Position numbers and translations under genes: made by a program. The notes under the pieces are model-generated. The model did no database searches, had not been told where the DNA came from, and was given only the letters and a program-made list of their open reading frames with translations. Shown here one piece after another: positions 58,096-62,984 of a DNA stretch of 64,000 bases. Every line of letters starts with the position of its first letter. Position 1 is the first letter of the stretch. Origin of the DNA: Hyphomonas beringensis (GTDB lineage Bacteria > Pseudomonadota > Alphaproteobacteria > Caulobacterales > Hyphomonadaceae); assembly GCF_000682755.1 (NCBI RefSeq), contig NZ_AWFF01000043.1, positions 1 through 64,000 of the forward strand, in the 5' to 3' direction.

Positions 58096-59028
58096 ATGAC
58101 ACGAACAGGACCCACCTCTGCCCGAGCCCGGACCTATCTCCATGCGGCCCGCGCGGCCCTGCATGCGCGGTTCGTCAAAGGGCCGTGGAGCCAGGCTGCG
58201 TTCGAATTTGTCACCTTCGGCATCAAACAGGGATGGGCCTGTCTGTTCGGCGGGCTGATGCTGGGCCTCTTGCTGGGAACCTTCCTCTGGTATCCGGACG
58301 CGGCCCCCCTGGCGCGCTATGACGTCCTTGTCCTTGGCGCGGTTGGCATTCAGATCATGATGCTCTGGACCGGGCTGGAGACCTGGGAAGAGGCGAAGAT
58401 CATCTTCGTTTTCCACATTGTCGGCACGGTGATGGAACTGTTCAAGACAGCCCATGGCAGCTGGATCTATCCGGAGGCGAGCCTGCTGCGCATCGGCGCG
58501 GTGCCGCTGTTTACCGGCTTCATGTATGCGGCCGTTGGCTCCTACATCGCGCGCGTATGGCGCATCTTCGATTTCCAGTTTGACCGCTTTCCACCCCTCT
58601 GGCTGCAGGGCGTGCTGGCTGCGGCGATCTATGTGAATTTCTTTGCCCATCACTGGCTGCCGGATGTCCGGATCGCGCTCTTCATCGCGACGGCGCTGAT
58701 TTATGGCCCGTGCCTCATCTGGTTTCGCGCCGACGAGACGCAAAGGCCAATGCCGCTCGTGATCGGCTTCCTGTTGGTGGCGCTTTTTATCTGGTTTGCC
58801 GAAAATCTTGGAACATTCGCCCGCGCCTGGGCCTATCCCGGGCAAGAACATGGCTGGCACATGGTCTCTTTATCAAAACTCGGTTCGTGGTATCTGCTTA
58901 TGATCATAAGTTTTGTCCTGGTCGCCGCCATTCACAAAGGCGCGCGCCGGGTGCCGGGAGGGCCCTCAGATGAAGATCCAGAAGCTGCTCGTCGCGAACC
59001 GGGGCGAGATCGCCTGCCGCATCTTTGA
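58096..59028 (+). CDS. DUF817-family membrane protein
   Basis: The 310-aa product has about eight hydrophobic segments and the DUF817 landmarks AAFEFVTFGIKQGWACLFG, DVLVLGAVGIQIMMLWTGLETWEE and KTAHGSWIYPE. The function of the family is unknown. The frame runs 59 bases into liuD. The last 20 residues (PSDEDPEAARREPGRDRLPHL region) are hydrophilic and arise from the overlap, and the true conserved end may be earlier. ATG 58096 follows GAGG. A longer frame from 58006 lacks support. Confidence 0.8.
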   Translation: MTRTGPTSARARTYLHAARAALHARFVKGPWSQAAFEFVTFGIKQGWACLFGGLMLGLLLGTFLWYPDAAPLARYDVLVLGAVGIQIMMLWTGLETWEEAKIIFVFHIVGTVMELFKTAHGSWIYPEASLLRIGAVPLFTGFMYAAVGSYIARVWRIFDFQFDRFPPLWLQGVLAAAIYVNFFAHHWLPDVRIALFIATALIYGPCLIWFRADETQRPMPLVIGFLLVALFIWFAENLGTFARAWAYPGQEHGWHMVSLSKLGSWYLLMIISFVLVAAIHKGARRVPGGPSDEDPEAARREPGRDRLPHL

Positions 59029-60874
59029 AACATGCCGGGAGCTGGGCATCGCGACCGTCGCGGTCTATTCCGATGCCGATGCGCGCGCCAAGCATGTGCG
59101 AGAGGCCGATGAGGCCGTGCATATCGGTCCTGCGCCAGCGCCGGAAAGTTATCTGAAGGGCGAGACCATCATTGCGGCGGCCAGTGCTGTCGGCGCGGAT
59201 GCGATCCATCCGGGCTATGGCTTCCTGTCCGAGAATGCCGACTTTGCCGAGGATGTGCGCAATGCGGGGCTCATCTGGGTCGGTCCGTCGCCCAAGGCGA
59301 TCCGATCCATGGGGCCCAAGGATGAGGCCAAGCGCATTGCCGAGGAGGCCGGTGTGCCCGTGCTGCCCGGCTATCGCGGCGAGGCGCAAGATGCCGAAAC
59401 ACTCACCAAGGCGGCCAAGGAGATCGGTTTCCCGCTGCTAATCAAGGCCGTGGCCGGGGGAGGGGGACGCGGCATTCGCCTTGTCTCCAAGGCGGCGGAG
59501 TTGAAGGCCGAACTGGAAAGCGCCGTGCGCGAGGCCGAAAGCGCCTTTGGCGATGGTCGCGTGATGCTGGAAAAACTGGTCCAGCAGCCGCGCCATATCG
59601 AGGTGCAGGTATTCGGTGACTCGCATGGCAATGTTGTCCATCTGTATGAACGCGACTGTTCGCTACAGCGCCGCCGTCAGAAAGTGATCGAGGAAGCGCC
59701 CGCCCCCGGCATGCCGGAAGAGGTGCGCGCCGCGATGACAGACGCCGCCGTCCGGCTGGCTCAGGCGGTCGGCTATGAGGGTGCTGGCACGGTGGAATTC
59801 ATCGTGGACGGATCAATGCCTCTGGCCAAAGACACGTTCTGGTTCCTTGAAATGAACACCCGTCTTCAAGTGGAGCATCCGGTGACCGAGATGATCACCG
59901 GGCAGGATCTGGTCGCCTGGCAATTGCTGGTCGCGAGCGGCGGGGAGCTGCCGCTCAGCCAGGCAGACATCCCTCTGATAGGCCATGCCATTGAGGCGCG
60001 GATTTGCGCCGAAGACCCCGCCGACGGGTTCCGCCCCGGCGCGGGCCTGATCCTGGAGTTCGGCCTGCTGGAGCCGGTCGATGGCGAGATCATTCGTTGG
60101 GATGCGGGCTTTGAAACGGGCGATCGTGTCCCGTCCAATTATGATTCCATGATCGCCAAATTGATCGTGTCCGGCGAGACGCGGGATGAGGCGATTGATC
60201 AGTTGACGGAGGCCCTGTCGCACACACAGCTGGCTGGTGTGCCATCGAATACCGGCTTCCTGCGCCGCTGCGCGCTGTCTGATGCCTTTCGCACGGGGAC
60301 GCATCATGTGAACTGGATTGCCGAGCAGGGCGAAGCCCTGACCCAGCCGCCCGGCGCGCATCAGCACGCCTGTGTTCTGGCCGTATGCGATATCGAACTG
60401 GATGATGCAGGCGCCGTCATGCCCTGGGATATTCGCGATGGCTTCCGGGCCAATGCCCATGCGGTGCGTAAGGCGGCCGTCGCTGTGGACACGGATGCCG
60501 ACTGGTTCGATCCGGCCGAGCATGAGGTGGACCCGGAGGCTCCGCTGCCCTTCGTGACGGATCTGTCCCCGCGCCGCTATGCGGTGACGACGGGCGGTGA
60601 CACAGTGCTGGTTGAGGTGCCGGATTATGACGCTGATGTCGAAGCGGTTCTGGGCGGCGACAGTGTCAGCGCGCCGATGCCGGGCAAACTGCTCGCCGTG
60701 AATGTGAAGCCGGGCGACACTGTGGCCAAGGGCGATGCGGTGGCCGTGATGGAAGCCATGAAGATGGAGCACAGCCTGGCCGCCCCGCGCGACGGCATCG
60801 TGGAGTCCGTCGAGGCCGCCACGGGCGATCAGGTCGCCGAAGGGGATGTTCTGGTTACGCTTGAGGCGGAGTAA
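58970..60874 (+). CDS. liuD: Methylcrotonyl-CoA carboxylase biotin-containing (alpha) subunit
   Basis: The 634-aa protein starts MKIQKLLVANRGEIACRIF and has the biotin carboxylase ATP-grasp motifs (AVAGGGGRGIRL, QPRHIEVQVFGDSHGN, FLEMNTRLQVEHPVTEMITG). The C-terminal biotin domain carries VMEAMKMEHSL. Together with LiuB it forms methylcrotonyl-CoA carboxylase. Note the shorter BT-domain region compared with the PccA-type protein at 40471. ATG 58970 follows GGGAGGG by eight bases, all within the end of the DUF817 gene, which implies translational coupling. It closes the liu cluster. Confidence 0.92.
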   Translation: MKIQKLLVANRGEIACRIFETCRELGIATVAVYSDADARAKHVREADEAVHIGPAPAPESYLKGETIIAAASAVGADAIHPGYGFLSENADFAEDVRNAGLIWVGPSPKAIRSMGPKDEAKRIAEEAGVPVLPGYRGEAQDAETLTKAAKEIGFPLLIKAVAGGGGRGIRLVSKAAELKAELESAVREAESAFGDGRVMLEKLVQQPRHIEVQVFGDSHGNVVHLYERDCSLQRRRQKVIEEAPAPGMPEEVRAAMTDAAVRLAQAVGYEGAGTVEFIVDGSMPLAKDTFWFLEMNTRLQVEHPVTEMITGQDLVAWQLLVASGGELPLSQADIPLIGHAIEARICAEDPADGFRPGAGLILEFGLLEPVDGEIIRWDAGFETGDRVPSNYDSMIAKLIVSGETRDEAIDQLTEALSHTQLAGVPSNTGFLRRCALSDAFRTGTHHVNWIAEQGEALTQPPGAHQHACVLAVCDIELDDAGAVMPWDIRDGFRANAHAVRKAAVAVDTDADWFDPAEHEVDPEAPLPFVTDLSPRRYAVTTGGDTVLVEVPDYDADVEAVLGGDSVSAPMPGKLLAVNVKPGDTVAKGDAVAVMEAMKMEHSLAAPRDGIVESVEAATGDQVAEGDVLVTLEAE

Positions 60875-60958
60875 ATCTCTCGTCCCGCCCATGCCTGAAC
60901 TTCGCTTAGCATGAATGTGGGCTCAACATGAGTCTGGTCAAAGAGGGGATAGAAACAA

Positions 60959-61113
60959 CTTGTCCTGTGTGAGGGGACAAGGGGCCCCGGAGTAACCCCC
61001 ACCTTCCAGATGCTGGTGTGATCCCGGATGTGCCGGTTTGGAGATCGGCATACCCTGTCTGCGGCCGATGGCTTGGGTGTGGTGACCGCAGAGGAGGAAA
61101 CGTCTGGAAGGTG
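60959..61113. ncRNA. Candidate structured RNA element, unidentified
   Basis: This stretch is not coding and has a multi-branched folding pattern. CACCTTCCAGA (61000-61010) pairs perfectly with TCTGGAAGGTG (61103-61113), enclosing two hairpins: TGCCG/CGGCA (61031-61035/61046-61050) and TCTGCGG/CCGCAGA (61058-61064/61086-61092). Beside it, CTTGTCC/GGACAAG (60959-60965/60975-60981) forms another hairpin. Read on the minus strand, this last hairpin is followed by TTGTTTCT, like an intrinsic terminator. It may be an independent small RNA or the 3' region of the 110-aa gene. It does not match my memory of tmRNA, RNase P, SRP or 6S RNA. The strand is unclear. Confidence 0.45.
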
Positions 61114-61129
61114 AGGGCCGCTGCGTAAC

Positions 61130-61462
61130 CTAGGCTGCGACAGCGTAACCGTGATGGATCTGCACCGGCGCGCGATGGGCTTCGGCGCGATAACGGCGGT
61201 GCACGATTGGCGGCGCGCAGATTTCCCCGAAATGATTGGCGGCGCGGGCGCTCGCCTCGGTCTTGAGGATCAGCTCGCCATATTCATTCTTCTCGACACT
61301 GACCTTTGCGGCAGAGCCGTCTGCTTCCGCGGCCCAGAACTCAATGCCGCCCATGGCCAGCTCGATGGCCTGGTCCAGTTCCATGCGGAAACCGTCTCCG
61401 AAGACAACATCCTTCGCATGGGCCGGGTCAAACTCACATCCCTTGATGACCAATTGTACCAT
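61130..61462 (-). CDS. Small protein of unknown function
   Basis: The 110-aa product begins MVQLVIKGCEFDPAHAKDVVFGDGFRMELDQAIELAM and ends with a basic His-rich segment (VHRRYRAEAHRAPVQIHHGYAVAA). It is soluble, without signal peptide or membrane segment, and I do not recognise it. ATG 61462 has GAGGAG about eight bases upstream. The 15-base longer start at 61477 is less likely. A GTTC-N7-GTTC LexA-like box lies about 100 bp upstream. The structured element at 60959-61113 is directly downstream of its stop. Confidence 0.6.
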   Translation of the reverse strand: MVQLVIKGCEFDPAHAKDVVFGDGFRMELDQAIELAMGGIEFWAAEADGSAAKVSVEKNEYGELILKTEASARAANHFGEICAPPIVHRRYRAEAHRAPVQIHHGYAVAA

Positions 61463-61560
61463 TGTGCAACTCCTCAAGATTTCGGGGCTGGGGCCCGGTG
61501 TTCCGCGTGTTCTTCAATATGAGAACATAAGCAGAATATTCATCTTTTGGAAAGGAAAAA

Positions 61561-61575
61561 GTTCCGACTTTGTTC
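61561..61575. promoter_or_regulatory. LexA-like box (GTTC-N7-GTTC)
   Basis: GTTCCGACTTTGTTC is an exact match to the direct-repeat LexA motif of alphaproteobacteria. It lies in the AT-rich interval between the gltX stop and the 110-aa gene. About 35 bp to the left is a GTTCT...AGAAC palindrome (61509-61526). A match of this kind is expected about twice by chance in 64 kb, so support is only moderate. Confidence 0.35.
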
Positions 61576-61643
61576 TAAAAAATGAAAACGCAGAGGAAAT
61601 CAGGGGCTTAACCGTCCAAATTCATTCCGGTGCGGTTTATGAC

Positions 61644-62984
61644 CTAGCCCTGCAGACGCTCCAGCGCCCGCTCACGACCGATCAGGGGCAGAAGGGCGCC
61701 CATGTCGGGGCCGTGGTCCTGGCCGGTCAGCGCCTTGCGCAGAGTCATGAACAGGCCGCGGCCCTTGCGTCCGGTCTCTGCCTTCACGGCATTGGCCCAT
61801 TGGCTCCAGGTCTCGCCCGTCAGCTCCCCCTCCGGCAGCAGACCGGCGGCTGTGGTGACGAACTCCTTGTCCTCATCATCAATCACCGGGGTGATCGTGC
61901 CGAACACGGTCTCCACCCATGCGGCGACGTCCGGCAGCAGGGAGCAGTTCGCGCGCACCACGGTCCAGAAGGCTTCATCGGCGGCGCGCGGGTCAACCGC
62001 TGCGAGGCGATCCTTCACCGCCTCAAAGGGCAGGGCGTGCAGCAGCGTGGCGTTGACGGCCAGCAGCTCGGCCTCGTCAAAACGCGCCGGGGCGCGGCCG
62101 ATCTTGTCAAAGCTGAATTCCTCGACCAGCTGGTCCAGCGTCTCGCGCGCCTCGACATTGTCGGACGTGCCGATCTTTGCCAGCAGGCTGCAGACCGCCA
62201 TCGGCTCATAGCCCTGCGCGCGCAGCTCGCCCATGGAGAGTGAGCCGAGCCGTTTCGACAGGCCCTGGCCATCCGCGCCGATCAGCAGCGGCGTGTGCGC
62301 CATGTCCGGCGCCGTGCCGCCAAGTGCCTTGAAGATCTCGATCTGCGCGCCGGAATTGGTGACGTGGTCTTCCCCGCGCACGACATGCGTAATGCCGGCT
62401 TCGATATCATCCACCACAGAGGGGAGGGTGTAGAGGTAAGAGCCATCCTCGCGGATCAGGATCGGGTCCGACAGGCTGGACGTGTCGATGCTTTGCGGGC
62501 CGCGCACAAGGTCGTTCCACTCGACGCGCTCGCCCGACAGCTTGAAGCGCCAGTGCGGCTTGCGGCCTTCGGCTTCCAGCTTGGCCTTCTCCTCATCGCT
62601 GAGGTCCAGCGCCGCGCGGTCATAAACCGGCGGGCGACCGCGGGAGAGGGCGATCTTGCGCTTGCGCTCTAGCTCGTCAGCGGACTCAAAGCAGGGATAG
62701 AGCAGGCCCATTCCGCGCAGCTTTTCGGCGGCTGCGTCATATTCGCCAAACCGGTCGGACTGGTTGAACGTATCGGCCCAGACCAGGCCCAGCCATTCGA
62801 GATCCACCTTCAGCGCATCTTCATACTCCTTTGTGGAGCGTTCTGTGTCGGTATCGTCGATGCGCAGGATGAACTTGCCCTGCTGACCCTTGGCATACAG
62901 CCAGTTGATCAGTGCGGTACGCACATTTCCGACGTGCAGACGGCCGGTGGGCGAAGGGGCAAAACGAACAATCGGTGCAGTCAT
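61644..62984 (-). CDS. gltX: Glutamyl-tRNA synthetase
   Basis: The 446-aa class I synthetase charges tRNA-Glu. It has FAPSPTGRLHVGNVRTALINW (HIGH-like HVGN, residues 17-20) and the KMSKS-equivalent GLSKRLGSLS near residue 235, as well as VRGEDHVTNSGAQIEIFKALG. Length matches the discriminating or non-discriminating alphaproteobacterial GluRS. Many alphaproteobacteria have two, and which one this is cannot be told. A single gene with 127 bp before the next start upstream. Confidence 0.94.
   Translation of the reverse strand: MTAPIVRFAPSPTGRLHVGNVRTALINWLYAKGQQGKFILRIDDTDTERSTKEYEDALKVDLEWLGLVWADTFNQSDRFGEYDAAAEKLRGMGLLYPCFESADELERKRKIALSRGRPPVYDRAALDLSDEEKAKLEAEGRKPHWRFKLSGERVEWNDLVRGPQSIDTSSLSDPILIREDGSYLYTLPSVVDDIEAGITHVVRGEDHVTNSGAQIEIFKALGGTAPDMAHTPLLIGADGQGLSKRLGSLSMGELRAQGYEPMAVCSLLAKIGTSDNVEARETLDQLVEEFSFDKIGRAPARFDEAELLAVNATLLHALPFEAVKDRLAAVDPRAADEAFWTVVRANCSLLPDVAAWVETVFGTITPVIDDEDKEFVTTAAGLLPEGELTGETWSQWANAVKAETGRKGRGLFMTLRKALTGQDHGPDMGALLPLIGRERALERLQG

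What the first reader, a model, noticed from the sequence alone, without database searches (positions are those of the whole stretch)
60875..61129. Multi-branched structured element of unknown identity
Between liuD and a converging 110-aa gene lies a segment with an 11-bp perfect outer stem that encloses two further hairpins, next to a GC-rich hairpin with a T-rich tail on the minus strand. Such a nested, three-way design over about 150 bases is unlikely by chance and does not match any RNA class I know. It could be a free small RNA or a 3' UTR element.
Basis: partly seen in the sequence, partly recalled or inferred. Interest (0 to 1): 0.7.

Follow-up and report, generated by a model that had tools for sequence, protein, structure and literature searches.

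The report
Conserved branched RNA after a gene
Just beyond the stop codon of a small gene of unknown function, Hyphomonas bacteria keep a folded, probably transcribed element whose paired letters change together, which marks it as a likely working RNA structure not found in the RNA-family library searched.

Summary
The structure is real. Its core is window 60996-61119, read on the MINUS strand: an outer stem P1 (15 pairs, one G-U) enclosing hairpins P2 and P3; P1 begins 12 nt after the stop of a convergent 110-aa gene. It matches no Rfam family. The three-way form is single-copy at the same place in 8 of 42 Hyphomonas genomes; ten more carry a 62-75 nt form on the same kind of stem. All 18 genomes with the gene have one or the other. 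Stems change in compensating ways, unpaired parts are conserved, and the element is more conserved than fourfold-degenerate sites of liuD (73 of 73 pairs) and of the 110-aa gene (71 of 73). One-sided stem changes are G-U on the minus strand at 16 positions and A-C at 3, pointing to an RNA in the gene's 3' UTR. The stem ends match a dispersed palindromic repeat concentrated in Hyphomonas (237 end matches in 42 genomes, control 1), so it is probably an old repeat copy kept as a 3'-UTR structure. Most likely role: defining and protecting the mRNA 3' end between convergent genes. Transcription was not testable. Bases 60875-60987 are a separate, fast-changing spacer with the relic of another repeat.

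The parts
61103..61117 (-). 5' arm of outer stem P1 (CCCUCACCUUCCAGA); with 61118 it holds an exact GCCCTCACCTYCC repeat end
60996..61010 (-). 3' arm of outer stem P1
61058..61092 (-). hairpin P2 (stem 61084-61092 / 61058-61066; loop holds CCACAC, 8 of 8 long forms)
   Evidence: minus-strand fold; hand alignment; alignment A4; word count
61026..61055 (-). hairpin P3 (stem about 61046-61055 / 61026-61035, one A-C mismatch)
61011..61025 (-). junction strand between P3 and P1, mostly unpaired (UCACACCAGC, 6 of 8 long forms)
61117..61127 (-). conserved leader between the stop of the 110-aa gene and P1 (YACGCAGCGGC)
   Evidence: CGCAGCGG after the stop in 18 of 18; ACGCAGCGGCYYYYRCC at this locus in 18 of 18 and at 3 other places in 42 genomes
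61130..61462 (-). 110-aa gene whose 3' UTR holds the element (no significant family; weak DUF3892 resemblance)
58973..60874 (+). convergent biotin-dependent carboxylase subunit (reader: liuD; the profile search shows biotin carboxylase and carrier domains, not the exact enzyme)
60875..60987 (.). lineage-specific spacer, not part of the element; relic of a second palindromic repeat at 60899-60914; CGGAGTAA at both borders (60867-60874, 60988-60995)
60959..60981 (-). terminator-like hairpin with T-rich tail, in the unconserved spacer
   Evidence: read; not listed
61521..61576 (.). conserved upstream region of the 110-aa gene with SOS-type boxes (GTTC-N7-GTTC at 61561-61575, plus-strand reading; ATTC-N7-GTTC at 61523-61537, minus-strand reading)

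Best explanation
The element is a structured RNA on the minus strand, inside the 3' UTR of the 110-aa gene. It is a conserved leader (YACGCAGCGGC), then an outer stem P1 closing a three-way junction with hairpins P2 and P3. It most likely arose from a copy of a Hyphomonas palindromic repeat that settled between two convergent genes and was kept. Proposed mechanism: the stable stem at the end of the coding region gives the mRNA a defined, exonuclease-resistant 3' end where there is no good intrinsic terminator, and limits antisense overlap with the convergent liuD transcript. Shown here: conservation, covariation, constant tie to the 110-aa gene, strand bias, ends shared with the repeats. Inferred: that it is transcribed, that it descends from the repeat, and the 3'-end role. 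The conserved unpaired parts suggest a further ligand (protein or RNA) that I cannot name.
For: 18 of 18 genomes with the 110-aa gene have the element after it. liuD is present in 41 of 42 genomes; of 12 fetched liuD flanks without the gene, 9 lack the element, 2 (G002, G005) hold a full repeat copy and 1 was unreadable. When an insert separated liuD from the element in G063, the element stayed with the 110-aa gene. Outer stem in 20 genomes, minus reading: 272 Watson-Crick, 22 G-U, 3 A-C, 1 mismatch. All three stems in 8 genomes: 233, 23, 5, 2. Stem positions with G-U versus A-C: 16 to 3, p 0.004 (count made by eye; test). The minus strand folds with lower z than the plus strand in 6 of 6. Element identity exceeds fourfold-site identity of liuD in 28 of 28 and 45 of 45 pairs and of the 110-aa gene in 26 of 28 and 45 of 45. 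Unpaired columns are more often invariant (25 of 53) than P2+P3 columns (10 of 47), p 0.011. Repeat ends. 24 of 45 classified intergenic repeat places lie between convergent genes and 5 between divergent ones (p 0.0005).
Against: No transcript data. No U-tract after P1 outside G019, so it is not an intrinsic terminator. A plain 3'-end barrier does not explain conserved unpaired parts. RNAalifold on a MAFFT alignment recovers P1 but not the P2 and P3 proposed, and on the MAFFT alignment two of five covariation measures do not exceed shuffles (253/500 and 491/500). The better counts come from an alignment made by hand to the structure, and its shuffles ignore relatedness. P2 and P3 alone also show A-C positions on the minus strand (one each). 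G-U bias can partly come from transcription-linked C-to-T change (recalled). In G000 versus G016 the 110-aa gene's fourfold sites are also fairly alike (41 of 48), so part of that pair's 97% reflects local history.
Confidence: 0.5

Rival explanations
1. A trans-acting small RNA cut from the 3' UTR (or with its own promoter), using the conserved leader or CACC-rich unpaired parts as seed.
For: Conserved stretches: leader 18 of 18, CCACAC 8 of 8 and UCACACCAGC 6 of 8 long forms. Body of about 125 nt. 3'-UTR-derived sRNAs are a known class (PMC7821165, passages).
Against: No U-rich 3' end of the kind recalled for Hfq-bound sRNAs, except in G019; I saw no shared seed between the interiors of long and short forms (by eye); targets not tested.
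Confidence: 0.2
2. A DNA-level element: a palindrome acting as cruciform, protein site or mobile-repeat end, with RNA folding incidental.
For: Ends shared with a dispersed palindromic repeat; the liuD-gltX junction is empty in G012 and holds a full repeat copy in G002 and G005.
Against: G-U over A-C asymmetry and better folding of one strand are not expected of a DNA-level palindrome; internal hairpins change in compensating ways on their own.
Confidence: 0.15
3. A binding platform for a protein, for instance autoregulation by the 110-aa product.
For: Constant pairing of gene and element (18 of 18); conserved unpaired parts.
Against: The protein has no recognised family or solved-structure match. 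For RNA-only autoregulation: direct pairing of the element with the gene's own start region is no better than shuffled in the 8 of 18 genomes tested.
Confidence: 0.1
4. A decayed repeat with no function.
For: Patchy distribution; paired family copies vary in length from 39 to 200 nt.
Against: More conserved than fourfold sites of liuD in 73 of 73 pairs and of the adjacent gene in 71 of 73, while the neighbouring spacer gave no BLAST match in the closest relatives; compensating changes.
Confidence: 0.05

Closest known systems
REP-type extragenic palindromes (GTAG/CGTC super-families; PMC3733652, abstract and passages seen)
   Same: Dispersed palindromes, mostly outside genes, mostly between convergent or same-direction genes, G-T pairing in stems, argued to act as RNA; dimers can form larger structures
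   Different: No GTAG or CGTC tag as a rule at the ends (2 and 0 of 87 flanks); ends are GCCCTCACCTYCC; 19 of 24 paired copies are 102-200 nt; no link to Y1 transposase. The window element itself is single-copy, diverged and vertically kept
Functional bacterial 3' UTR structures and 3'-UTR-derived sRNAs (review PMC7821165, passages seen)
   Same: Sits directly after a stop codon, between convergent genes
   Different: That review reports that most 3' UTRs of orthologous genes differ between species of Staphylococcus, Bacillus and Enterobacteriaceae; this one is conserved across species of a genus, with covariation
Caulobacter intergenic repeats (CIR; recalled, no paper seen)
   Same: Long intergenic repeats with inverted organisation in a related alphaproteobacterium (recalled)
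   Different: CIR are recalled to carry a GANTC methylation site; GANTC is absent from 19 of 20 elements and 23 of 24 paired repeat copies
Intrinsic (Rho-independent) terminators
   Same: GC-rich stem after a stop codon
   Different: No U-tract after P1 by eye except in G019; multi-branched

Membership tests
Any Rfam 15 family | Score at or above the family's gathering threshold | tested here: not met
   Only two tRNAs in the whole window; none in 11 ortholog loci; three chance-level hits far below threshold at E up to 10
Intrinsic terminator | Stem-loop directly followed by a U-tract | tested here: not met
   Minus strand continues GGGGGUUACUCC after P1; the scan of 60800-61700 lists none here. 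Exception G019, UUUCUUUUUU
REP (GTAG/CGTC) | Terminal GTAG or CGTC tag | tested here: not met
   Directly outside the end: GTAG in 2, CGTC in 0 of 87 distinct flanks; commonest are GAAG 10, CGCA 8, AAAG 6
REP (GTAG/CGTC) | Location at gene 3' ends, convergent or same-direction | tested here: met
   24 convergent, 16 tandem, 5 divergent, 6 intragenic, 6 unknown of 57 places from six genomes, with a crude gene caller
REP with RAYT | Y1 transposase (PF01797) in repeat-rich genomes | tested here: not met
   9 of 42 genomes have a match (4 over the cut-off); the six with most repeat ends (G008, G015, G010, G026, G005, G031) have none
MITE | Terminal inverted repeats | tested here: met
   24 distinct copies with GCCCTCACCTYCC at both ends
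MITE | Target-site duplication | tested here: not met
   None seen by eye in the flanks of the 24 paired copies
Structured RNA | Compensatory base changes | tested here: met
   Changes on both sides at 4 of 17 P1, 6 of 10 P2 and 7 of 7 P3 pairs on a hand alignment; for P1 also on MAFFT alignments, where P2 and P3 are misaligned and two of five whole-structure measures do not beat shuffles
Structured RNA | Transcription | not testable with these tools
   no RNA-seq available

The most novel reading that the evidence does not exclude
A dispersed palindromic repeat was recruited as the 3' UTR of a DNA-damage-inducible gene and evolved into a new regulatory RNA with a conserved leader and CACC-rich loops that act on other RNAs or bind a dedicated protein.
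Probability: 0.15. Interest if true: 0.75.

Novelty: new variant of a known kind. Interest (0 to 1): 0.5.

Why it matters
It offers, in one genus, what look like stages in the making of a conserved RNA from a repeat: an empty junction, a full repeat copy, a short form and a three-way form beside the same gene. It also gives a covariation-backed structure absent from Rfam 15, in 18 genomes, next to a probably SOS-controlled gene, which makes a concrete experiment possible.

Tried and rejected
Known RNA classes by Rfam: none. Integron attC was considered from memory and dropped on its core motif; no call tested it. Intrinsic terminator: no U-tract. RAYT mobilisation: no association. Target-site duplication: none seen. 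CIR-type methylation site: nearly absent. Pairing of the element with the start region of its own gene: not above shuffles in 8 of 18 genomes. Structure search with the predicted 110-aa protein: no match at E 0.001. Other copies of the three-way form: none in 42 genus genomes (E up to 1) or 105 family genomes (E up to 0.1), both with strict filters that can lose weak matches. Literature: searches. In those listings and in the passages read I saw no description of this element or repeat, only a table row with palindrome counts for H. jannaschiana (PMC12306157); most subscription papers are not held, so this is weak evidence that it is undescribed.

Full report
WHAT IS THERE. The window lies in the genus Hyphomonas: named relatives of the 110-aa gene include H. 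pacifica, H. atlantica and H. jannaschiana (11 loci, 3 of them uncultured or labelled only to family or order). Between the end of a biotin-dependent carboxylase gene (reader: liuD; stop ends at 60874) and the end of a convergent 110-aa gene (stop 61130-61132) are 255 bases. The element proper is 60996-61119. On the minus strand it reads, 5' to 3': P1 arm, junction, hairpin P2, hairpin P3, junction, P1 arm. No Rfam family matches.

CONSERVATION. A DNA search found similar sequence in 12 of 61 genomes (own included), all in the genus. The 110-aa gene is in 18 of 42 genus genomes. Reading the sequence between it and liuD shows an element in all 18. Eight (G000, G016, G009, G025, G063, G003, G024, G019) have the 122-127 nt three-way form. 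Ten have a 62-75 nt form with the same kind of outer stem and a different interior. A covariance model of the long form finds one locus in each of those 8 and none in the other 34 genus genomes (E up to 1) or in the rest of 105 family genomes (E up to 0.1); both used strict filters. On 20 sources already held, the same model also hits 4 of 10 short-form loci (E 0.0004 to 0.0015), the G005 but not the G002 repeat copy (E 0.0002), and, weakly, the plus strand of six long forms.

SELECTION. Mean identity of the element against fourfold-degenerate sites of liuD is 0.78 against 0.58 in the long-form group (higher in 28 of 28 pairs) and 0.94 against 0.70 in the short-form group (45 of 45). Fourfold sites of the 110-aa gene average 0.66 and 0.75; the element is higher in 26 of 28 and 45 of 45 pairs. 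Element identity was taken from pairwise alignments without gap columns, which flatters it somewhat. Between G000 and G016 the element is 97% identical, while the spacer 60875-60987 beside it gave no BLAST match. For that pair the 110-aa gene is also fairly similar (41 of 48 fourfold sites), so part of the 97% is local history.

COVARIATION AND STRAND. In 20 genomes the outer stem, read on the minus strand, has 272 Watson-Crick, 22 G-U, 3 A-C and 1 mismatched cell; the A-C cells are at the innermost position. In the 8 long forms all three stems give 233, 23, 5 and 2: 97% paired against 80% when whole arms are dealt anew, 0 of 2000 shuffles as high. That alignment was made by hand to the structure, and the shuffles ignore relatedness; both favour it. 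On the plain MAFFT alignment, paired cells, covariation score and cells with two-sided change exceed all 500 shuffles, but the number of pairs with two-sided change (253 of 500) and of further pair types (491 of 500) do not; P2 and P3 are misaligned there. RNAalifold on a MAFFT alignment recovers P1 only. Counting stem positions by eye show G-U and 3 show A-C on the minus strand (p 0.004); on the plus strand the numbers would be reversed. Six of six orthologs folded have a lower z-score on the minus strand (-4.0 to -7.2) than on the plus strand (-1.7 to -4.7), and all six form P1, P2 and P3 there (6 of the 8 long forms were folded). Unpaired columns are more often invariant than P2 and P3 columns (25 of 53 against 10 of 47, p 0.011). 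A leader YACGCAGCGGC sits between the stop codon and P1 in 18 of 18.

WHOSE UTR. The element goes with the 110-aa gene. liuD is present in 41 of 42 genomes. I fetched 30 of the 41 liuD flanks: 18 belong to genomes with the gene; of the other 12, nine show no element in the 330 bases printed, two (G002, G005) hold a full repeat copy, and one (G028) ran off its contig. In G012 liuD directly abuts the converging gltX (name read from the sequence, no family search). In G063 a 306-aa reading frame lies between liuD and the element, with the liuD end sequence on both sides, and the element remains beside the 110-aa gene. The 110-aa gene has its own conserved upstream region: ATTC-N7-GTTC was found in 17 of 18 by script (the G063 start was mis-set), and AATATTCTGSTTATGTTCTC occurs without mismatch at this locus in 18 of 18. 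GTTC-N7-GTTC is the alphaproteobacterial LexA motif according to PMC3323433 (passage), and an exact one is at 61561-61575. A two-mismatch version of the 20-mer, with a perfect GTTC-N7-GTTC, precedes a Y-family-polymerase-like reading frame in G005 (that name is my reading, no family search was run). So the element is probably the 3' UTR of a short, DNA-damage-inducible mRNA. In the own genome the generic pattern GTTC-N7-GTTCT is no commoner than its reversed control (11 against 16), so this rests on conserved position.

ORIGIN. The P1 ends match GCCCTCACCTYCC. That 13-mer occurs 237 times in the 42 genus genomes (38 of 42 with a hit) against 1 for the reversed control (summed). Not every hit is a repeat: in the window's own genome two of four (C26, C67) showed no partner end when read. 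Outside the genus the CCC version is in 23 of 182 sampled order genomes, at most twice each, against 15 of 18 sampled genus genomes. Many hits are inverted pairs: 24 distinct paired copies of 39-200 nt were collected, counting two orthologs of this element and two copies at the liuD-gltX junction. At least 8 of the 19 copies over 100 nt fold into an outer stem, two side hairpins and a long central stem. Places of the 13-mer lie mostly at gene 3' ends: of 57 in six genomes (56 stretches fetched), 24 convergent, 16 tandem, 5 divergent, 6 intragenic, 6 unknown, with a crude gene caller. G032 and G004 orthologs of the window element carry exact 13-bp ends on both sides. No target-site duplication was seen and Y1 transposase does not track the repeats, so how they spread is unknown.

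MECHANISM. P1 lacks a U-tract in all but G019 (by eye), so intrinsic termination is unlikely. A stable stem near the stop codon, between convergent genes, fits a 3'-end barrier against exonucleases after factor-dependent termination (mechanism recalled; trimming of Rho-dependent 3' ends is stated in the abstract start of PMC12350095 shown in the listing). REPs of other bacteria show the same location bias and G-T pairing and are argued to act as RNA (PMC3733652, abstract and passages). Conserved unpaired parts and leader are not explained by a barrier and leave room for an sRNA or a protein ligand. I tested only direct pairing with the gene's own start region, in 8 of 18 genomes: nothing above shuffles.

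VERDICT. A real, conserved, covarying structure, most likely a 3'-UTR RNA on the minus strand, probably descended from a palindromic repeat concentrated in this genus. Not in Rfam 15, narrow in distribution, function inferred.

Noticed in passing
window 61521-61576: Conserved upstream region of the 110-aa gene with SOS-type GTTC-N7-GTTC boxes; AATATTCTGSTTATGTTCTC without mismatch at this place in 18 of 18 genomes with the gene, plus G026; a two-mismatch version precedes a Y-family-polymerase-like frame in G005 (L215).
   Followed up: partly
window 60899-60914 and borders 60867-60874 / 60988-60995: Relic of a second dispersed palindromic repeat (ACTTCGCTYAGSATGA; in 27 of 211 overlapping loci, four of them with inverted pairs about 45 bp apart) in a spacer bordered by CGGAGTAA on both sides.
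   Followed up: partly
L047:574-1494 with L015 (G063): A 306-aa reading frame lies between the end of liuD and the element, with the liuD end sequence (CTGGAGGCGGAGTAA) present on both sides, as if the liuD 3' end were an insertion site.
   Followed up: no
Hyphomonas genomes G008, G015, G010, G026 and others: Dispersed palindromic repeat family with GCCCTCACCTYCC ends, up to 37 end matches per genome; several copies sit near contig ends, so they may break assemblies.
   Followed up: yes
G032:C1:207269-207529 (L042): A second, diverged copy of the 110-aa gene (E 5e-22) just upstream of the first in G032.
   Followed up: no
window 61133-61462: The 110-aa protein has no family match; one of 11 orthologs hits DUF3892 at E 0.17; the predicted fold has mean pLDDT 80 with a low-confidence tail and no solved relative at E 0.001.
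   Followed up: partly
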